NCBI GenBank assembly: GCA_031269485.1 | Contig: JAISZC010000097.1 | Span: 1 to 38,750 of the forward strand | DNA from: Deltaproteobacteria bacterium | Lineage (GTDB): Bacteria > Desulfobacterota > Desulfarculia > Adiutricales > Adiutricaceae | Length of the DNA: 38,750 nucleotides | Direction: 5' to 3' | In this document: positions 23,831 through 31,596 of the stretch, piece after piece | How the letters are laid out: every line of letters starts with the position of its first letter | How positions within the stretch are numbered: position 1 is the first letter of the stretch | Position numbers and translations under genes: made by a program | The notes under the pieces: model-generated | Told to the model about the DNA's origin: nothing | Databases searched by the model: none | Seen by the model: only the letters and a program-made list of their open reading frames with translations

Positions 23831-24727
23831 TGTTTCTGAGTTGATGAACAAAAAAATGGCGTCTAAATCGACGCGCATCAAGTTTTTAGGCGTGGAATGC
23901 TCTGAAGACAATGCAAGATAAGTGGAGAAACATATTTAGTCTGATACGATGGCAATAAGAGCTTTTATAGCGCTAAAAGCCATATATGCACCATAATACA
24001 GGGTTAAAAAGCAAAGTCGGTCCATGGAAGGGAATGGAAAGATGGATACGCAGAATATCACCAAAAATTAGAATATTAATCCATATTTAGCTAAATCGAT
24101 ATATTTATTTGTATACGCCTAATAGTCATGCTATTAAGCAGCAACAAGAATAATAGATTCGGCAAGTCATATGCTGCACACTTAAAATGGCTAAATAGCT
24201 TCTTATGAAAGCTTTAGTGCAAATCTATTGAAATTATATGGAACAGCGAAGGACAAAATCGTTTATTTTTCATATATATAGGCTAATTATTCCAATTTAT
24301 GATGATAGCCCTCAATTATAGAAATAAATCTGAAAAAATCGCTAGATATATTCAGAAGTAAGGGAGACAACACTTTTAATACACATATATGAGAAATATC
24401 AATCTATAATAAAAGTCAAATAAGGGTTATATGTCACAAAAAGGCGACCAACGACCGATTACGCCAAAGCTTGAGGGGGCCGACCGCCGCGCGGCGCACG
24501 TCCGCTCGTTCAGACGGCGGCCGAGGCCGAAGCATTTTGACCTTTTCGGCCGAAAAAATCGCCAAAGCTGTCTTGGCTGCGAACCGATTCCAGTGTATTA
24601 TGTTAGCGGCGCTGACTCGAATGTCGGAGGCCGATTCACGTTCAGGCTCGCCGCCGAAGACGACTTTTTGCCGCTGCAGGCCTGAGCTGGGAGCTCCGGG
24701 CCGGGCGCTCGATTGGATAGGCGTGAC

Positions 24728-25627
24728 ATGACGTCTTCACGCAAGAACTTAAGTCCCTCCGCCAACTTGACTTCCAAGAGCCGGCGTCGCGAAGGCGCCG
24801 CTTTCGAGGCGGCGACGGCTACGAAGACCGGCTCGTCCGGCAGGAAAGCTGCGACGCCCGCCGCTGAAGCCCGATTGAGGCTGGTCGTGGAGACGGCGAT
24901 TTTTCAGACGGTTTTGGAGACGTCGGTCGGCGACCGAAAACGCCCCGATGAGCTTAAGCTCAAGATGCTTCTGATCGGACAGGACGGCCCCGCCGAACAC
25001 GTCCGCTGGGCTCTGCCCGGAGACGAGCTGAGATCGTGCGAGGACCTCTCGCAGGCGGCGGACCGGGTGGCCGTCGAGGCTTCCGGGCTGGAATGTCGCC
25101 GCCTCGAGCAGCTGCGGACCTACCTGACCCCGGAAGACGAGCAGGGCCGCCGCCTGGCAAGCTGCGTCCATCTGGTCCTGACTGGTCTCGCGGTCTCGGA
25201 CGGTCCGGTCGGGCATCCTCGGGCCGTCTGGTTTGAGGCCGAAAGAAACATGGAAGGCTTTTGGCGCTTGAGCCGCGACTGCACGAAGGTGGACTTGAAG
25301 CCGCCGACGCTCGGGAAGTGGGCCGGCCGCCTGGAGGAGTCGGCCGCCGCGGCCTTGGAGAAGCTTGAGCTGGAGGCCCTCAGAGGCTGGCCTATCTTCG
25401 AGCTGATGCCCGAGATGTTCACCGTCGGACAACTGCAAAGCATTCAGGAGCTCATTTTAGGCCGGCGGCTTCTGGGCTCGGCCTTTCGGCGGAAGGTCGA
25501 ACGGATGCTGTCGCCCACCGGCGAGTACGTCCGAGACCGGCGTTTTAGGCCTTCGCAGCTCTTCCGCCATGACCCCGATTGGCTGATTTCGCCGCAGGCG
25601 GTGGCGGAGGCCCTGGAACGGCGCTGA
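24728..25627 (+). CDS. NrtR-like Nudix/winged-helix regulator
   Basis: Nudix-like 'LKMLLIGQDGPAEHVRWALPGDELRSCEDLSQAADRVAVEASGL' plus C-terminal 'FTVGQLQSIQELILGRRLLGSAFRRKVERMLSPTGEYVRDRRFRPSQLFRHD', matching the NrtR-type wHTH tail. ATG at 24728 preferred. Confidence 0.8.
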   Translation: MTSSRKNLSPSANLTSKSRRREGAAFEAATATKTGSSGRKAATPAAEARLRLVVETAIFQTVLETSVGDRKRPDELKLKMLLIGQDGPAEHVRWALPGDELRSCEDLSQAADRVAVEASGLECRRLEQLRTYLTPEDEQGRRLASCVHLVLTGLAVSDGPVGHPRAVWFEAERNMEGFWRLSRDCTKVDLKPPTLGKWAGRLEESAAAALEKLELEALRGWPIFELMPEMFTVGQLQSIQELILGRRLLGSAFRRKVERMLSPTGEYVRDRRFRPSQLFRHDPDWLISPQAVAEALERR

Positions 25628-25991: not shown

Positions 25992-26756
25992 ATGAGCAAA
26001 AATTTTCCGGATGCGCCCATAGCCCAGGTGCGCGAGATTTTGTTCGGGGCTCAGCTCAAGGACATGGAAGTGAGATTTCGTCGCCAGGAGGAACGCCTTT
26101 TGCGGGAAATCAGCGAGGTCAAGGAGTCGCTCAGAAGCCGCCTTGACTCTTTGGAAAATTTCATGAAAAGCGAAATTACCTCCTTGATGACCAAGCTCAA
26201 GGAGGAACGCGACGAACGCGACGCCTTGATGAAATCCGAGGCTCGCGAGCGCGGCGAGCAGCAGGCCGCCGACCGGCGCGAAAACGCCGAGAATTTGGCC
26301 AAGGAGCAGCGCGAAAGGAGCGAGGCCGACGCCAAGCTGACCTCCGATCTCAACGCGGCCAACGAAAATTTCGATCGGCGGGCGACCAAGATCAGCGGCG
26401 CGGTGGACGGCCTGGAGCGGACCTTGCGCGAGCTCATCATGACCGAGTCCACCGAGATCAACGACAAGATCGACCTCAAGCACAACGAGACGGCGACCGT
26501 CATTGACAAGACATCCTCCCAGATCCGCTCCGACATGGTCTACCGCACGGCCTTGACGAGCATGTTCACGGAAATGGTGGCTTCGCTGTCCAAGCCCTGG
26601 AACATCGACGTTTCGCAGGTCGAGCCTGAAGACATCTACGAAGCTGAGGCTTCGGAAGGCTCGTCGGGTCAGGAAGGCCAAGGCGGCCAAGAAGGCCAAG
26701 GCGGCCAAGACGGCCAGGGCGATCAAGGCTGGCAGGGGGATCAGGGCCACTACTGA
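25992..26756 (+). CDS. Coiled-coil protein with C-terminal Gly/Gln repeat tail
   Basis: Long heptad-rich charged region 'LKDMEVRFRRQEERLLREISEVKESLRSRLDSLENFMKSEIT...'; tail QEGQGGQEGQGGQDGQGDQGWQGDQGHY. ATG at 25992. Confidence 0.8.
   Translation: MSKNFPDAPIAQVREILFGAQLKDMEVRFRRQEERLLREISEVKESLRSRLDSLENFMKSEITSLMTKLKEERDERDALMKSEARERGEQQAADRRENAENLAKEQRERSEADAKLTSDLNAANENFDRRATKISGAVDGLERTLRELIMTESTEINDKIDLKHNETATVIDKTSSQIRSDMVYRTALTSMFTEMVASLSKPWNIDVSQVEPEDIYEAEASEGSSGQEGQGGQEGQGGQDGQGDQGWQGDQGHY
26670..26741 (+). repeat. Four 18-bp in-frame tandem repeats
   Basis: caggaaggccaaggcggc/caagaaggccaaggcggc/caagacggccagggcgat/caaggctggcagggggat. Confidence 0.9.
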
Positions 26757-27026: not shown

Positions 27027-29525
27027 ATGGGTTTTTTTTCAAAATTTTGGGGCAAAAAAGTTTCCTCAGCGCCTCCGGAAGGGAGTCCCGCAACTCTCGA
27101 CGGCGTCGGGGCCGACGGCGCTCCTCCGTTCGGCTCGTTGACCCTCGAAGAGCCCCTGGAACGCCTGGGGCCGGAGATTCAAGGCCCGGACGAGGACGCA
27201 TTGCTCTCCCCGGACGAGGCCGGCTTGGCGGCGGGATCCGCCGAAGACTTCAACCCCGTTGACGCGGCGGTTGAAGAGGAGCGGACCTTCGAGCGGGCCG
27301 CCGCTTTGACTTTGGCGTCTTCGGAATCCTCGGCGTCTTCGGAGTCCTTGGAGATCGCGGCCTTTTCGGAGGCCGCAGAGCCGTCGTCGACCGCCGAAGA
27401 CCTCGACGCGCAAGACCAGGGCGATGGATCCGCGCCCCAAGAGTCCCAAGAGTCCCAAGAGTCTCCGGCCGAAAGCGGCCAGACCCCGGAAGGCAAGTCG
27501 GCCGCTTCGTTGAATGACATCGAAGCGCTGCTTTTGAACGATCTCGACAACTTGCTGGGCGACGATTTGCTGGCCTCCGCGGCGCCGCCGCATGATGGCG
27601 CGTCTGCGTCGTCTTCCGAGGCGGATCTGGCGGGCGGCGAAAGCCGTTTCGTCGACGGCCCTTCGGAAGCCGACGATCCGTCCCGCTGGCCCTCCCCTCC
27701 GGAAGATGGCAGCGATCTGGCCCAACTGCGCCGTTTGCTGATGGATCGCGAGCTGACCCAGCTCTCCTACTTCGGCAAGCTCGTCACTGATCCTGGCCGC
27801 CAAGCCCACGCCCTCAGCCAAGTCGTCACCGAAGCGCTGTTGCTGCGCACCCGACGCGACGACAAGCTCAACACCGTCTTGGCCCCGACGGTGGAACGCA
27901 TTGTCACCTCCTCCGTTCGGCGCAACCCCGACGCCTTTGCCAGCCAGATCTTTCCCGTCATCGGCCCGGCCATCAGACGCTCAATTTCCGAGACGTTCGT
28001 CTCGATGCTCCAAAGCTTCAACAGCATGCTCGAAAAGAGCCTGTCGTTCAAAGGTCTGATGTGGCGGCTGGAGGCCTTGAGGGTCCGCAAGCCCTTCAGC
28101 GAGATAGTCTTTCTTCACACGTTGCTGTACCACGTCGAAGAAATTTATCTAATTCACGCCGAGACCGGCCTGGTGCTGCAGCACTTGGTCTCAGAAGGCG
28201 GCGAGAGTCGAGACGCCGATCTGGTGGCCGGCATGTTCACCGCCATCCAGGAGTTCGTCCGTGACAGCTTTTCCGGCGCCGGCGGCGAAAACTTAGAAAA
28301 TTTGCGCTTGGGCGAACGCTCGATATTTTTGCGCCGCACCGAAATGGTCTATTTGGCCTGCGTCGTGCGCGGCAATCCGCCGGCCACCTTGCCTCAGGAC
28401 CTTCAGGAAGCCTTGGAGCTCATGGTGGTCGACTGCGCCGAAGATTTGGACGCCTTCAAGGGCCATGTTGAACCATTCGTCAAGTGTCGCCGATATTTTG
28501 AAGATTTTTTGCAGGTCCGCTATCAGGAAAAGCCCAAAAAACTGCCGTTGGCGGTGCGTCTGCTGCCGGCGGCCGCCGTCTTCGCCGCCTTGTTCTGGCT
28601 GTCCGCCACGACGTACAACCATCGCCGCGATTTGGCCCTGGCCGCGCGTCAGGCCGCCATGGCGGCCGAGCTGGCCCAGGCCCAAGAAAACTCCTTGCTG
28701 CTCGACCGCCGTAAAGTCGATCGGGCGCTCGAGCTGTTGCGCCAAGAACCGGGGCTGGTGCCCGCCAGGGCGGCCCTGAACAGCCGGTCGGTCTGGGAGG
28801 TGATCATCTTGCGGGACAGTCTGGCCAAAGATCCGACCGCAATACTCGTCGACGAAGGCGGCCTCAATCCTGCGCGCCTGACGGTCATCAACCGGCCCTA
28901 CGTCTCATTGGACGAAGACATCGTCGAGAAGCGGGTGGAGACGACCATCCGTCCTCTGAGCACGGTGACGATGGATTTTCAGGGCGAGACGGGGCTGCTG
29001 ATCTTGCGGGGCTCGGCGCCCATGGGCTGGATTCTGTCGGTGCGGGAGCGGGCCATGACCATCCCGGGGGTGCTGGAGCTGGACACGACCTTGCTGCAGG
29101 ATCCCAGGAGCATGGAGATGGAGTCCTTGATTGCGTCCATCAACGGGTTGATCATCCACTTTCCGACCAACAAGGCCGAGCCGGTGCCCGAGGACTTGCC
29201 GGCCCTCAACATGGCGGTGAACAATTTGGTGGCGCTCGAGCGGCTGGCGACGGAAATGCAGATGAGCGTCAACTTGGTCATCTTCGGCTTGGCCGACGCC
29301 ACCGGGCAGGACCGCCGCAACTACGAGCTCTCCGAGCAGCGGACCAAGACCGTGGCCGCCATGCTCTACGCCCGCGGCTGCAGCATTCCCATCGCCAACT
29401 ACGGCCTGGGCAGCCAGTTCTCGGCCCAATCCGAAGAAGGCGGGCCTCTTGAGGATCCGGAAAGCCGTCGCATCGAGCTCAGGGTCCGCCTGTCCCAAGG
29501 CGGCTTCCGGGCGACCGAGGAATGA
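27027..29525 (+). CDS. OmpA-family membrane protein with putative roadblock/longin-like and BON-like regions
   Basis: Acidic N-terminus; 'SFNSMLEKSLSFKGLMWRLEALRVRKPFSEIVFLHTLLYHVEEIYLIHAETGLVLQHLV...DADLVAGMFTAIQEFVRDSF'; TM 'LPLAVRLLPAAAVFAALFWLSATTY'; C-terminal OmpA 'VIFGLADATGQDRRNYELSEQRTKTVAAMLYARG'. ATG at 27027 preferred over 26892. Confidence 0.88.
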   Translation: MGFFSKFWGKKVSSAPPEGSPATLDGVGADGAPPFGSLTLEEPLERLGPEIQGPDEDALLSPDEAGLAAGSAEDFNPVDAAVEEERTFERAAALTLASSESSASSESLEIAAFSEAAEPSSTAEDLDAQDQGDGSAPQESQESQESPAESGQTPEGKSAASLNDIEALLLNDLDNLLGDDLLASAAPPHDGASASSSEADLAGGESRFVDGPSEADDPSRWPSPPEDGSDLAQLRRLLMDRELTQLSYFGKLVTDPGRQAHALSQVVTEALLLRTRRDDKLNTVLAPTVERIVTSSVRRNPDAFASQIFPVIGPAIRRSISETFVSMLQSFNSMLEKSLSFKGLMWRLEALRVRKPFSEIVFLHTLLYHVEEIYLIHAETGLVLQHLVSEGGESRDADLVAGMFTAIQEFVRDSFSGAGGENLENLRLGERSIFLRRTEMVYLACVVRGNPPATLPQDLQEALELMVVDCAEDLDAFKGHVEPFVKCRRYFEDFLQVRYQEKPKKLPLAVRLLPAAAVFAALFWLSATTYNHRRDLALAARQAAMAAELAQAQENSLLLDRRKVDRALELLRQEPGLVPARAALNSRSVWEVIILRDSLAKDPTAILVDEGGLNPARLTVINRPYVSLDEDIVEKRVETTIRPLSTVTMDFQGETGLLILRGSAPMGWILSVRERAMTIPGVLELDTTLLQDPRSMEMESLIASINGLIIHFPTNKAEPVPEDLPALNMAVNNLVALERLATEMQMSVNLVIFGLADATGQDRRNYELSEQRTKTVAAMLYARGCSIPIANYGLGSQFSAQSEEGGPLEDPESRRIELRVRLSQGGFRATEE
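27437..27463 (+). repeat. Three perfect 9-bp tandem repeats (CCAAGAGTC)
   Basis: Read directly; encodes QESQESQES in the acidic N-terminal region of the OmpA-family protein. Confidence 0.95.
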
Positions 29526-29874: not shown

Positions 29875-30375
29875 ATGATAAATAAAAAAATATGTATGCT
29901 AGGTTCATTTTCAGTCGGGAAAACTGCCTTAGTTAGGCAATACGTTAATTCTATTTTTTCTGATACCTATCTTTCGACTGTCGGGGTTAAAATTAGTAAA
30001 AAAACTATACATATTAAAGATGAAGAGATGAATTTATTGTTATGGGATATGGAAGGGCAAGATAACTATAGCCTGGTCAATATGTCTTATTTGCGTGGGG
30101 CTCATGGTCTTTTGTTTGTAGTTGACGGTACTAGAGGAGAAACACTGGCTGTTTCGCTTAAACTCAGAGTCGAATCCATGAAAATTCTTGGATCGGGGAT
30201 TCCTAGTATTTTTATTATAAATAAAGCAGACCTTGAATCGGAATGGGAAATCACAGAAAAAGTTTTAGCCTCCTTAGAGGCTAAAGGTGTAACCATTTAT
30301 AAGACTAGTGCTAAAACGGGCTTGAATGTTGAAAAAATTTTTGCTGTTCTAGCTGAATCTATGTTGGATAAATAA
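29875..30375 (+). CDS. Rab/Ras-like small GTPase
   Basis: G1 'GSFSVGKTAL', G2 Thr in 'YLSTVGVK', G3 'WDMEGQD', G4 'NKAD', G5 'TSAK'; 166 aa, no lipidation Cys at the C-terminus. Strongly AT-rich. Confidence 0.95.
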   Translation: MINKKICMLGSFSVGKTALVRQYVNSIFSDTYLSTVGVKISKKTIHIKDEEMNLLLWDMEGQDNYSLVNMSYLRGAHGLLFVVDGTRGETLAVSLKLRVESMKILGSGIPSIFIINKADLESEWEITEKVLASLEAKGVTIYKTSAKTGLNVEKIFAVLAESMLDK

Positions 30376-30528: not shown

Positions 30529-31596
30529 ATGCACGAGAAGAAGACTGCCCTGCTGAGCGACGCGCCCGCTCGCAAGGACGCCGAAGACCGACGCGGCGGC
30601 GACGTCGCTGATGAAGCTCTCGCCCTACGTTTTCTTTGCAGCATGGAGTTCGCGTTGCTGAGGCGCCTCAAGCCCATGTTCTACGAGCTTTACGGCTTGG
30701 CGCCAGATTTTTACTCCAAGTTTTTCCCCCCCGAGCCCGACGGCGCGCCCTGCCGCGCGCCTTGGGAGCACTCCTCGATGCTGGAGTTTTTTCTCTTGGA
30801 CGCGGAGGAGTTTTTCGACCGCTCGCCCAAGCCCGGCGACAAGGTCAACTCGGGGATTTGGCTGGAATCCAACGACAAAACCGGCGATGAGTTGCCGCTG
30901 GTGGCCAAGGCCGTGCAGCTGCACTCCGATCAGCTGATCACCATTCAAGTCATTCAGGAAGAATATGCCGAGCGGGTGCGCATCTTGCGCAAGGCCCGGA
31001 TGGAGCTGGTCGAACGCCGAAAAATATTCAACGCGCTGAACTCCTTCAAGAAGAAGGCCCTGTACGACGCCATGACCAAGCTCTACAACCGGGGCAGCTT
31101 CATGGAGATTCTGCAGGATCAGGTGGAGAAGTACGGCGCCTACACGCCCGCCATGGCCTTGTTCATGATCGACGTCGACAATTTTAAAAAGGTCAACGAC
31201 ACCTTGGGCCATCTGGTGGGCGATTCGGTTTTGGTGCAAGTGTCGGAGATTTTAATAAACTCCTTGCGCAAGAACGATTTTCCGGCCCGCTACGGCGGCG
31301 ACGAGTTCGCCGTGGTGGCCCCCGACACCAACGCGGAGCAGTCCAGCAAGCTGGCCGAAAAACTCAGGCACCGCATTCAGGCCCACAACTTCAACACCGG
31401 CGAAATTCCCGTGACCATCAGCGTGGGCTGCACGACCTACCGCACCGGGGAGAGCATCCAGAACTTCATCCGTCGGGCCGACAAGGCCCTTTACGAAGCC
31501 AAGCAGCTGGGCCGCAACGTGGCCTGCTTCAGGGATCCCTGGCTCATCGACGACGAGGAGCTCTCGCCGGCCGCCCCCGTGGAGCGGGGGGCCTGA
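30529..31596 (+). CDS. Diguanylate cyclase (GGDEF) with uncharacterised N-terminal sensor-like domain
   Basis: 'ALYDAMTKLYNRGSFMEIL', 'FMIDVDNFKKVNDTLGHLVGDSVL', 'RKNDFPARYGGDEFAVVA' (I-site RxxD five residues before GGDEF), 'RRADKALYEAKQLGRN'. Confidence 0.95.
   Translation: MHEKKTALLSDAPARKDAEDRRGGDVADEALALRFLCSMEFALLRRLKPMFYELYGLAPDFYSKFFPPEPDGAPCRAPWEHSSMLEFFLLDAEEFFDRSPKPGDKVNSGIWLESNDKTGDELPLVAKAVQLHSDQLITIQVIQEEYAERVRILRKARMELVERRKIFNALNSFKKKALYDAMTKLYNRGSFMEILQDQVEKYGAYTPAMALFMIDVDNFKKVNDTLGHLVGDSVLVQVSEILINSLRKNDFPARYGGDEFAVVAPDTNAEQSSKLAEKLRHRIQAHNFNTGEIPVTISVGCTTYRTGESIQNFIRRADKALYEAKQLGRNVACFRDPWLIDDEELSPAAPVERGA

What the first reader, a model, noticed from the sequence alone, without database searches (positions are those of the whole stretch)
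28020..28440. Putative roadblock/longin-like domain inside the OmpA-family protein, a possible GAP/GEF for the adjacent GTPase
The stretch 'FSEIVFLHTLLYHVEEIYLIHAETGLVLQHLVSEGGESRDADLVAGMFTAIQEFVRDSFSG...LENLRLGERSIFLRRTEMVYLACVVRGNPPATLPQDLQEALELM' has the strand-helix-strand-strand-strand-helix rhythm of roadblock/longin folds. MglB, a roadblock protein, is the established GAP for the small GTPase MglA. A membrane protein combining such a domain with an OmpA peptidoglycan-binding domain next to a Rab-like GTPase would be an unusual envelope-coupled GTPase regulator.
Basis: inference. Interest (0 to 1): 0.8.

Follow-up and report, generated by a model that had tools for sequence, protein, structure and literature searches.

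The report
Longin-like domain on GTPase-linked envelope protein
A bacterial cell-envelope protein encoded beside a Rab-like GTPase carries a domain predicted to fold like the longin/roadblock platforms that bind and regulate small GTPases in eukaryotes; the gene set was already known, but this domain was on record only as 'of unknown function'.

Summary
The stretch lies at 28095-28424, in the predicted cytoplasmic half of an 832-aa membrane/OmpA-like protein, and is conserved in bacteria and archaea. Two AlphaFold2 models (pLDDT 73 and 84) give the order β-β-α-β-β-β-α-α. All 50 best Foldseek PDB matches listed for each are roadblock/longin proteins or complexes containing them. The top match is Mon1-Ccz1, the Ypt7 GEF; MglB, TRAPP, Fuzzy-Inturned and Ragulator also appear.

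Sequence searches do not reach any known roadblock or longin family: Pfam hits are sub-threshold and hhalign to MglB-type roadblocks gives 2.5%. So this is a longin-type fold, not a proven MglB homologue.

The coiled-coil / domain-OmpA / Rab-like GTPase operon recurs in Desulfobacterota, the sampled proteobacterial phylum and Planctomycetota. It is the 'Group 1 Rup' gene set of Wuichet & Søgaard-Andersen 2014, which called this domain unknown. New here: the fold, and the same domain as a separate, multi-copy module in an archaeal phylum, again beside Rab-like GTPase genes more often than chance (10 observed, 0.68 expected).

Most likely it is an envelope-anchored longin platform that binds the GTPase. 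GEF, GAP or scaffold is undecided. No binding or activity was tested.

The parts
25992..26756 (+). Gene for a predicted coiled-coil cytoplasmic protein (P0004), first gene of the conserved cassette
   Evidence: Homologues directly upstream of the domain-OmpA gene in relatives from Desulfobacterota, the proteobacterial sample and Planctomycetota
27027..29525 (+). 832-aa envelope protein: acidic low-complexity N-terminus, helical region, longin-type domain, one TM segment, OmpA-like C-terminus (P0001)
   Evidence: Translation; Pfam OmpA E=9.2e-4, below the curated cut-off, at residues 740-786; hydropathy
27027..27713 (+). Residues 1-229, acidic, A/S/G/P-rich, probably disordered
   Evidence: 22% D+E, 48% A+S+G+P, 4% K+R; many relatives' matches begin only after it
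27714..28121 (+). Residues 230-365, helical region conserved in the bacterial family only
   Evidence: AlphaFold2 helices; absent from archaeal copies, whose matches begin at profile position ~138 (conservation)
28122..28496 (+). Residues 366-490, longin-type (roadblock/longin superfamily) domain: the finding
   Evidence: AlphaFold2, Foldseek PDB, family-wide conservation
28215..28271 (+). Residues 397-415 (ADLVAGMFTAIQEFVRDSF), central helix of the domain, its most conserved helix or strand; equivalent to longin helix alpha-1, which carries the GTPase-binding surface in Mon1-Ccz1 and TRAPP
   Evidence: Conservation 2.56 bits across bacteria and archaea; role of the equivalent helix from PMC5216073. 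Equivalence is inferred from topology.
28542..28607 (+). Residues 506-527, single transmembrane segment
   Evidence: Kyte-Doolittle maximum 1.89 at 508; no segment above 1.15 outside this area; 94 of 98 bacterial family ORFs have a 19-aa segment above 1.6
29235..29417 (+). Residues 737-797, OmpA-like peptidoglycan-binding region
   Evidence: Pfam OmpA E=9.2e-4, NCBIfam YiaD-type E=6e-6, both below curated cut-offs; clear OmpA hits in relatives
29875..30375 (+). Rab/Ras-like small GTPase (P0002), Rup Group 1 type
   Evidence: Pfam Ras E=7.5e-30; G1-G5 motifs present, G3 = DMEGQ; orthologues in 32 of 41 genomes of the order
30529..31596 (+). Diguanylate cyclase (GGDEF) with a conserved N-terminal domain (P0003), output gene of the cassette
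   Evidence: Pfam GGDEF E=3e-44; N-terminal domain aligned in relatives

Best explanation
Residues 366-490 form a longin-type domain that serves as the docking and control platform for the Rab-like (Rup Group 1) GTPase encoded next door. The host protein spans the inner membrane once, with the longin domain in the cytoplasm and an OmpA-like region in the periplasm holding peptidoglycan. GTPase control would thus be fixed to the envelope and perhaps respond to its state. The likely working unit is a dimer of longin domains whose central helices (residues 397-415) form the GTPase surface, as in Mon1-Ccz1, TRAPP and MglB. I favour platform or GEF action over GAP action. The loaded GTPase would then act on the neighbouring diguanylate cyclase through its N-terminal domain. 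Shown here: predicted fold, family conservation, conserved gene order, domain layout. Inferred: binding, dimerisation, direction of catalysis, signal and output.
For: Two AlphaFold2 runs (pLDDT 73 and 84, pTM 0.54 and 0.75) give the same longin-order topology. Foldseek top hits are Mon1-Ccz1 (E=2e-5), with TRAPP, CPLANE/Fuzzy-Inturned, MglB bound to MglA, and Ragulator among the best. Independently, the most recurrent weak Pfam match among 111 members is Fuz_longin_1 (MON1/FUZ/HPS1; 8 members, best E=0.0032); Intu_longin_1 (CCZ1/INTU/HPS4) matches 3, the window's own copy at E=0.15. Gene order coiled-coil > domain-OmpA > GTPase recurs (90 of the 94 fetched loci with both genes have them on the same strand, duplicates included). 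In an archaeal phylum the domain alone recurs and 10 of 105 copies lie within 1 kb of a Rab-like GTPase gene against 0.68 expected. The central helix is the most conserved helix or strand in the combined bacteria-archaea set.
Against: No sequence match passes any roadblock or longin cut-off. The genome-wide Fuz_longin_1 search is weak: the best hit in the G318 genome is this gene at E=0.45, and it finds nothing in most relatives. Longin and roadblock folds also occur in proteins that bind no GTPase (AP adaptors, SNAREs, dynein light chain). No complex could be modelled. The archaeal adjacency test does not correct for relatedness; the 10 genomes include probable close pairs. Most archaeal copies found (95 of 105) are not next to a GTPase gene.
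Confidence: 0.7

Rival explanations
1. GEF: the longin domain, as a homodimer, opens the GTPase's nucleotide pocket, like Mon1-Ccz1, TRAPP or Fuzzy-Inturned do for Rabs. (This and the next two are sub-cases of the best explanation.)
For: Closest structures are RabGEF longins; weak Pfam hits are to the same GEF families; the GTPase is Rab/Ras-like, and its switch I keeps the aromatic positions (F28, Y32) that Mon1-Ccz1 engages in Ypt7.
Against: Those GEFs are heterodimers with extra elements; the Mg-displacing switch I Lys of the Rab7 family is Leu here; switch I aromatics are general to Rabs.
Confidence: 0.3
2. Non-catalytic anchor or scaffold: the domain recruits the GTPase (and perhaps the coiled-coil protein and the cyclase) to envelope sites, as Ragulator does for Rags.
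For: Roadblock/longin platforms often scaffold; Ragulator chains are among the matches; the host has a membrane and OmpA-like anchor; archaeal copies sit on PKD/Ig surface proteins, AAA-TPR proteins and others, consistent with a docking module.
Against: Nothing specific excludes catalysis.
Confidence: 0.3
3. GAP: the domain stimulates GTP hydrolysis, as MglB does for MglA.
For: MglB, including MglA-bound MglB (3t12, 6h5b), is among the fold matches; the window clade's GTPase has its own G3 Gln, so an organising GAP of the MglB kind could suffice.
Against: No sequence relation to MglB; Wuichet & Søgaard-Andersen 2014 place the presumed trans-Gln in the output protein; the domain has no invariant Arg or Gln.
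Confidence: 0.15
4. The fold is right but the domain is only a dimerisation or sensing module and the GTPase binds elsewhere, for example the coiled-coil protein or the conserved helical region 230-365.
For: The helical region is about as conserved as the domain in bacteria; the coiled-coil gene is an equally constant neighbour.
Against: In archaea only the longin part is kept, yet GTPase genes still adjoin it.
Confidence: 0.2

Closest known systems
Group 1 Rup GTPase neighbourhood (Wuichet & Søgaard-Andersen 2014, PMC4316618)
   Same: Same set: coiled-coil protein, domain-TM-OmpA protein, Rab-like small GTPase, c-di-GMP or kinase output protein
   Different: The paper lists the domain as unknown function and finds no MglB coupling for Rup GTPases; here the domain is predicted to be longin-type. 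In the window clade the G3 Gln is present and the candidate trans-Gln of the output protein is replaced by Arg.
Longin domains of heterodimeric RabGEFs (Mon1-Ccz1, Fuzzy-Inturned, BLOC-3)
   Same: Predicted fold and element order, best Foldseek scores, sub-threshold Pfam hits, Rab-like partner gene
   Different: One domain per chain in the bacterial protein, no extra longins, membrane and OmpA-like anchor, identity about 14-19% over the structural alignments, activity unknown
MglB (roadblock) / MglA
   Same: Bacterial small GTPase paired with a roadblock/longin-fold protein; MglB is among the structural hits
   Different: No sequence similarity (hhalign 2.5%); different GTPase family; longin rather than roadblock element order
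Actinobacterial conservon (CvnA-D)
   Same: Membrane signalling protein plus roadblock protein plus small GTPase encoded together
   Different: MglA-type GTPase and a separate MglB-type protein; no OmpA fusion

Membership tests
Roadblock/longin superfamily (by fold) | Five-stranded sheet with beta-beta-alpha-beta-beta-beta-alpha core | tested here: met
   AlphaFold2 secondary structure and Foldseek PDB matches; prediction only
Roadblock/LC7 family (MglB, PF03259) | Sequence match to the family profile | tested here: not met
   No hit in Pfam scans; PF03259 finds nothing in the window's genome; hhalign prob 2.5% to ten roadblock proteins
Roadblock/LC7 family (MglB, PF03259) | Roadblock element order, with an N-terminal helix before strand 1 as part of the conserved unit | tested here: not met
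   Archaeal copies conserve no helix before strand 1, and the unit ends with two helices, i.e. longin order; the bacterial model does have a short helix there
MON1/CCZ1/FUZ/INTU longin-1 families (PF19036, PF19031) | Profile score above the curated cut-off | tested here: not met
   Best E=0.0032 among 111 members; no match over the cut-off in any of 24 genomes, best on this gene E=0.45
Longin GEF | Binds the cognate Rab through the paired alpha-1 helices and speeds nucleotide exchange | not testable with these tools
   No complex modelling or assay available; the corresponding helix is the most conserved helix or strand
Group 1 Rup system | Four-gene neighbourhood: coiled-coil, domain-TM-OmpA, Rup GTPase, c-di-GMP or kinase output | tested here: met
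   against the description
Group 1 Rup system | GTPase lacks the G3 catalytic Gln | tested here: not met
   Window clade has DMEGQ; relatives outside the family mostly have R, K, E or T at that place
Group 1 Rup system | Invariant Gln in the N-terminal domain of the output protein | tested here: inconclusive
   The column with Gln in divergent relatives (LQxAR) is Arg in the window clade; identity with the published logo could not be checked
Group 1 Rup system | Placement in the Rup Group 1 clade of a GTPase tree | not tested
   No tree was built

The most novel reading that the evidence does not exclude
The Rab-like GTPase plus longin-platform pair that eukaryotes use for membrane identity exists in bacteria and in an archaeal phylum as a membrane-receptor signalling module. 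This domain family would be the prokaryotic counterpart of RabGEF longins: the missing roadblock/longin partner of the Rup GTPases, which were recorded as never coupled to MglB.
Probability: 0.25. Interest if true: 0.85.

Novelty: new variant of a known kind. Interest (0 to 1): 0.62.

Why it matters
Rup GTPases are the prokaryotic small GTPases closest to Rab/Ras/Rho, yet the 2014 survey found none coupled to MglB and left their constant membrane partner as a domain of unknown function. If that partner is a longin, both major prokaryotic small-GTPase families pair with a roadblock/longin-fold protein. The pairing of Rab-like GTPases with longins would then not be special to eukaryotes and Asgard archaea. 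It also gives a direct test: do residues 357-505 bind the adjacent GTPase, and do they change exchange or hydrolysis? The archaeal copies on surface proteins suggest a wider class of receptors wired to small GTPases.

Tried and rejected
Pfam and NCBIfam scans of the window proteins: no roadblock or longin match passes. PDB sequence search with two profiles: nothing significant; TRAPP Bet5 appears only at E=0.93. hhalign against ten MglB-type roadblocks: not significant. Natural fusion of domain and GTPase that could be folded as one chain: none among the fetched loci. Strict exchange between a Gln in the GTPase and a Gln in the output protein: rejected, since some lineages have neither (loci L115, L116, L128). 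Genome-wide PF19036 search as sequence proof: too weak. One literature search for follow-up work on 'Rup' GTPases found only the 2014 survey and passing mentions. Levine 2013 on new longin and roadblock families is not held and could not be read. Co-folding with the GTPase was not possible: the tool takes one natural chain.

Full report
What was checked. The quoted peptide is residues 357-466 of the 832-aa product of 27027-29525 (window 28095-28424). The protein has an acidic low-complexity N-terminus (1-229), a helical region (230-365), the domain in question (about 366-490), one hydrophobic segment (506-527) and an OmpA-like region (737-797; Pfam E=9.2e-4, NCBIfam E=6e-6, both under curated cut-offs, but clear OmpA hits in relatives). 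The domain precedes the transmembrane segment, so if the OmpA part is periplasmic the domain is cytoplasmic, where the GTPase is.

Fold. AlphaFold2 on residues 230-505 with an 80-sequence alignment gave pLDDT 73; on residues 332-505 with a 111-sequence alignment it gave pLDDT 84 and pTM 0.75. Both give helix, two strands, long helix, three strands, helix, short helices. Foldseek against the PDB: top hits are chains of Mon1-Ccz1 (5ldd, E=2e-5), then TRAPP, AP adaptor small and medium chains, CPLANE/Fuzzy-Inturned, MglB, Ragulator, bacterial and Asgard roadblocks. All 50 listed matches of each search are roadblock/longin proteins or complexes containing them. Which subunit chains 5ldd_B and E are was not checked.

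Sequence. No known family is reached. Robl_LC7 is not hit, and hhalign to ten MglB-type roadblocks gives 2.5%. The commonest sub-threshold Pfam match among the 111 members is Fuz_longin_1 (8 members, best E=0.0032), with Intu_longin_1 in 3. These are the same GEF families that lead the fold search, which is suggestive, not proof; the members are related, so the 8 are not independent.

Longin rather than roadblock. Published work notes that the two are circularly permuted (PMC3521125). The archaeal copies conserve nothing before strand 1 and end with two helices around an F-x-G-[DH] loop. That is the longin order (my reading of the topology).

Spread. In the window's order 33 of 41 genomes have the protein and 32 the GTPase. 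Profile searches found the domain with its helical region in 14 of 395 genomes of the window's phylum (7 of these from the window's own family), 51 of 399 of a proteobacterial phylum and 15 of 294 of the phylum of a Planctomycetota locus. In the phylum of an archaeal locus ('Euryarchaeota' record), 33 of 293 genomes carry the domain alone, often many copies, on PKD/Ig-like surface proteins, AAA-TPR, DUF835 and RING-bearing proteins, or as tandem pairs. Several of these loci are partial reading frames, so full architectures are not established.

Link to the GTPase. In bacteria the order coiled-coil, domain-OmpA, GTPase is nearly constant. In archaea 10 of 105 copies lie within 1 kb of a Rab-like GTPase gene, with 0.68 expected from gene counts and genome sizes. 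Relatedness was not corrected, and the list of copies was capped per genome. The central helix 397-415 is the most conserved helix or strand in the combined set (2.56 bits). In Mon1-Ccz1 and TRAPP the two alpha-1 helices form the Rab-binding surface (PMC5216073). The equivalence is by topology only; surface exposure could not be inspected.

What was known. Wuichet & Søgaard-Andersen 2014 (PMC4316618) described this four-gene neighbourhood for Group 1 Rup GTPases, called the domain one of unknown function, found no Rup GTPase coupled to MglB, and proposed that a Gln missing from the GTPase is supplied by the output protein.

A twist on the catalytic Gln. In the window's family the GTPase has Gln in G3 (DMEGQ), while other lineages mostly have Arg, Lys, Glu or Thr. 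In the output protein a Gln found in divergent relatives (LQxAR) is Arg in the window's family. Some lineages have neither, so it is not a simple exchange.

Verdict. GAP or GEF action is open. I hold 0.7 that the domain is a GTPase-binding longin platform, with GEF and scaffold about equal and GAP less likely.

Noticed in passing
window 29875-30375: The GTPase gene is 34.5% GC (GC3 28.7%) between genes of 60-63% GC (GC3 79-83%), though its protein is about 90% identical to those of related genomes, whose copies are less skewed. No explanation.
   Followed up: partly
L185-L214, L066, L134 (archaeal loci): The same domain is a multi-copy module in an archaeal phylum, mostly on long surface-type or AAA-TPR proteins, sometimes as tandem pairs; no Pfam family was found that covers it.
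   Followed up: partly
window 29875-30375 and 30529-31596; loci L114-L144: A catalytic-type Gln is in the GTPase in the window's family, and a conserved Gln is in the output protein's N-terminal domain in divergent lineages; a few lineages appear to have neither.
   Followed up: partly
L120:920-8998: In one relative the domain gene opens into a reading frame of at least 2693 aa (3116 aa) with no recognisable domain except a weak DUF998 match; possibly a fusion.
   Followed up: no
window 24713-25627: A NUDIX-like protein with an NrtR-type winged-helix domain upstream of the cassette (Pfam NrtR_WHD E=6e-14).
   Followed up: no
whole genome G000: No Robl_LC7 protein was found in the window's own genome (75.7% complete), so no MglB is at hand for this GTPase.
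   Followed up: yes
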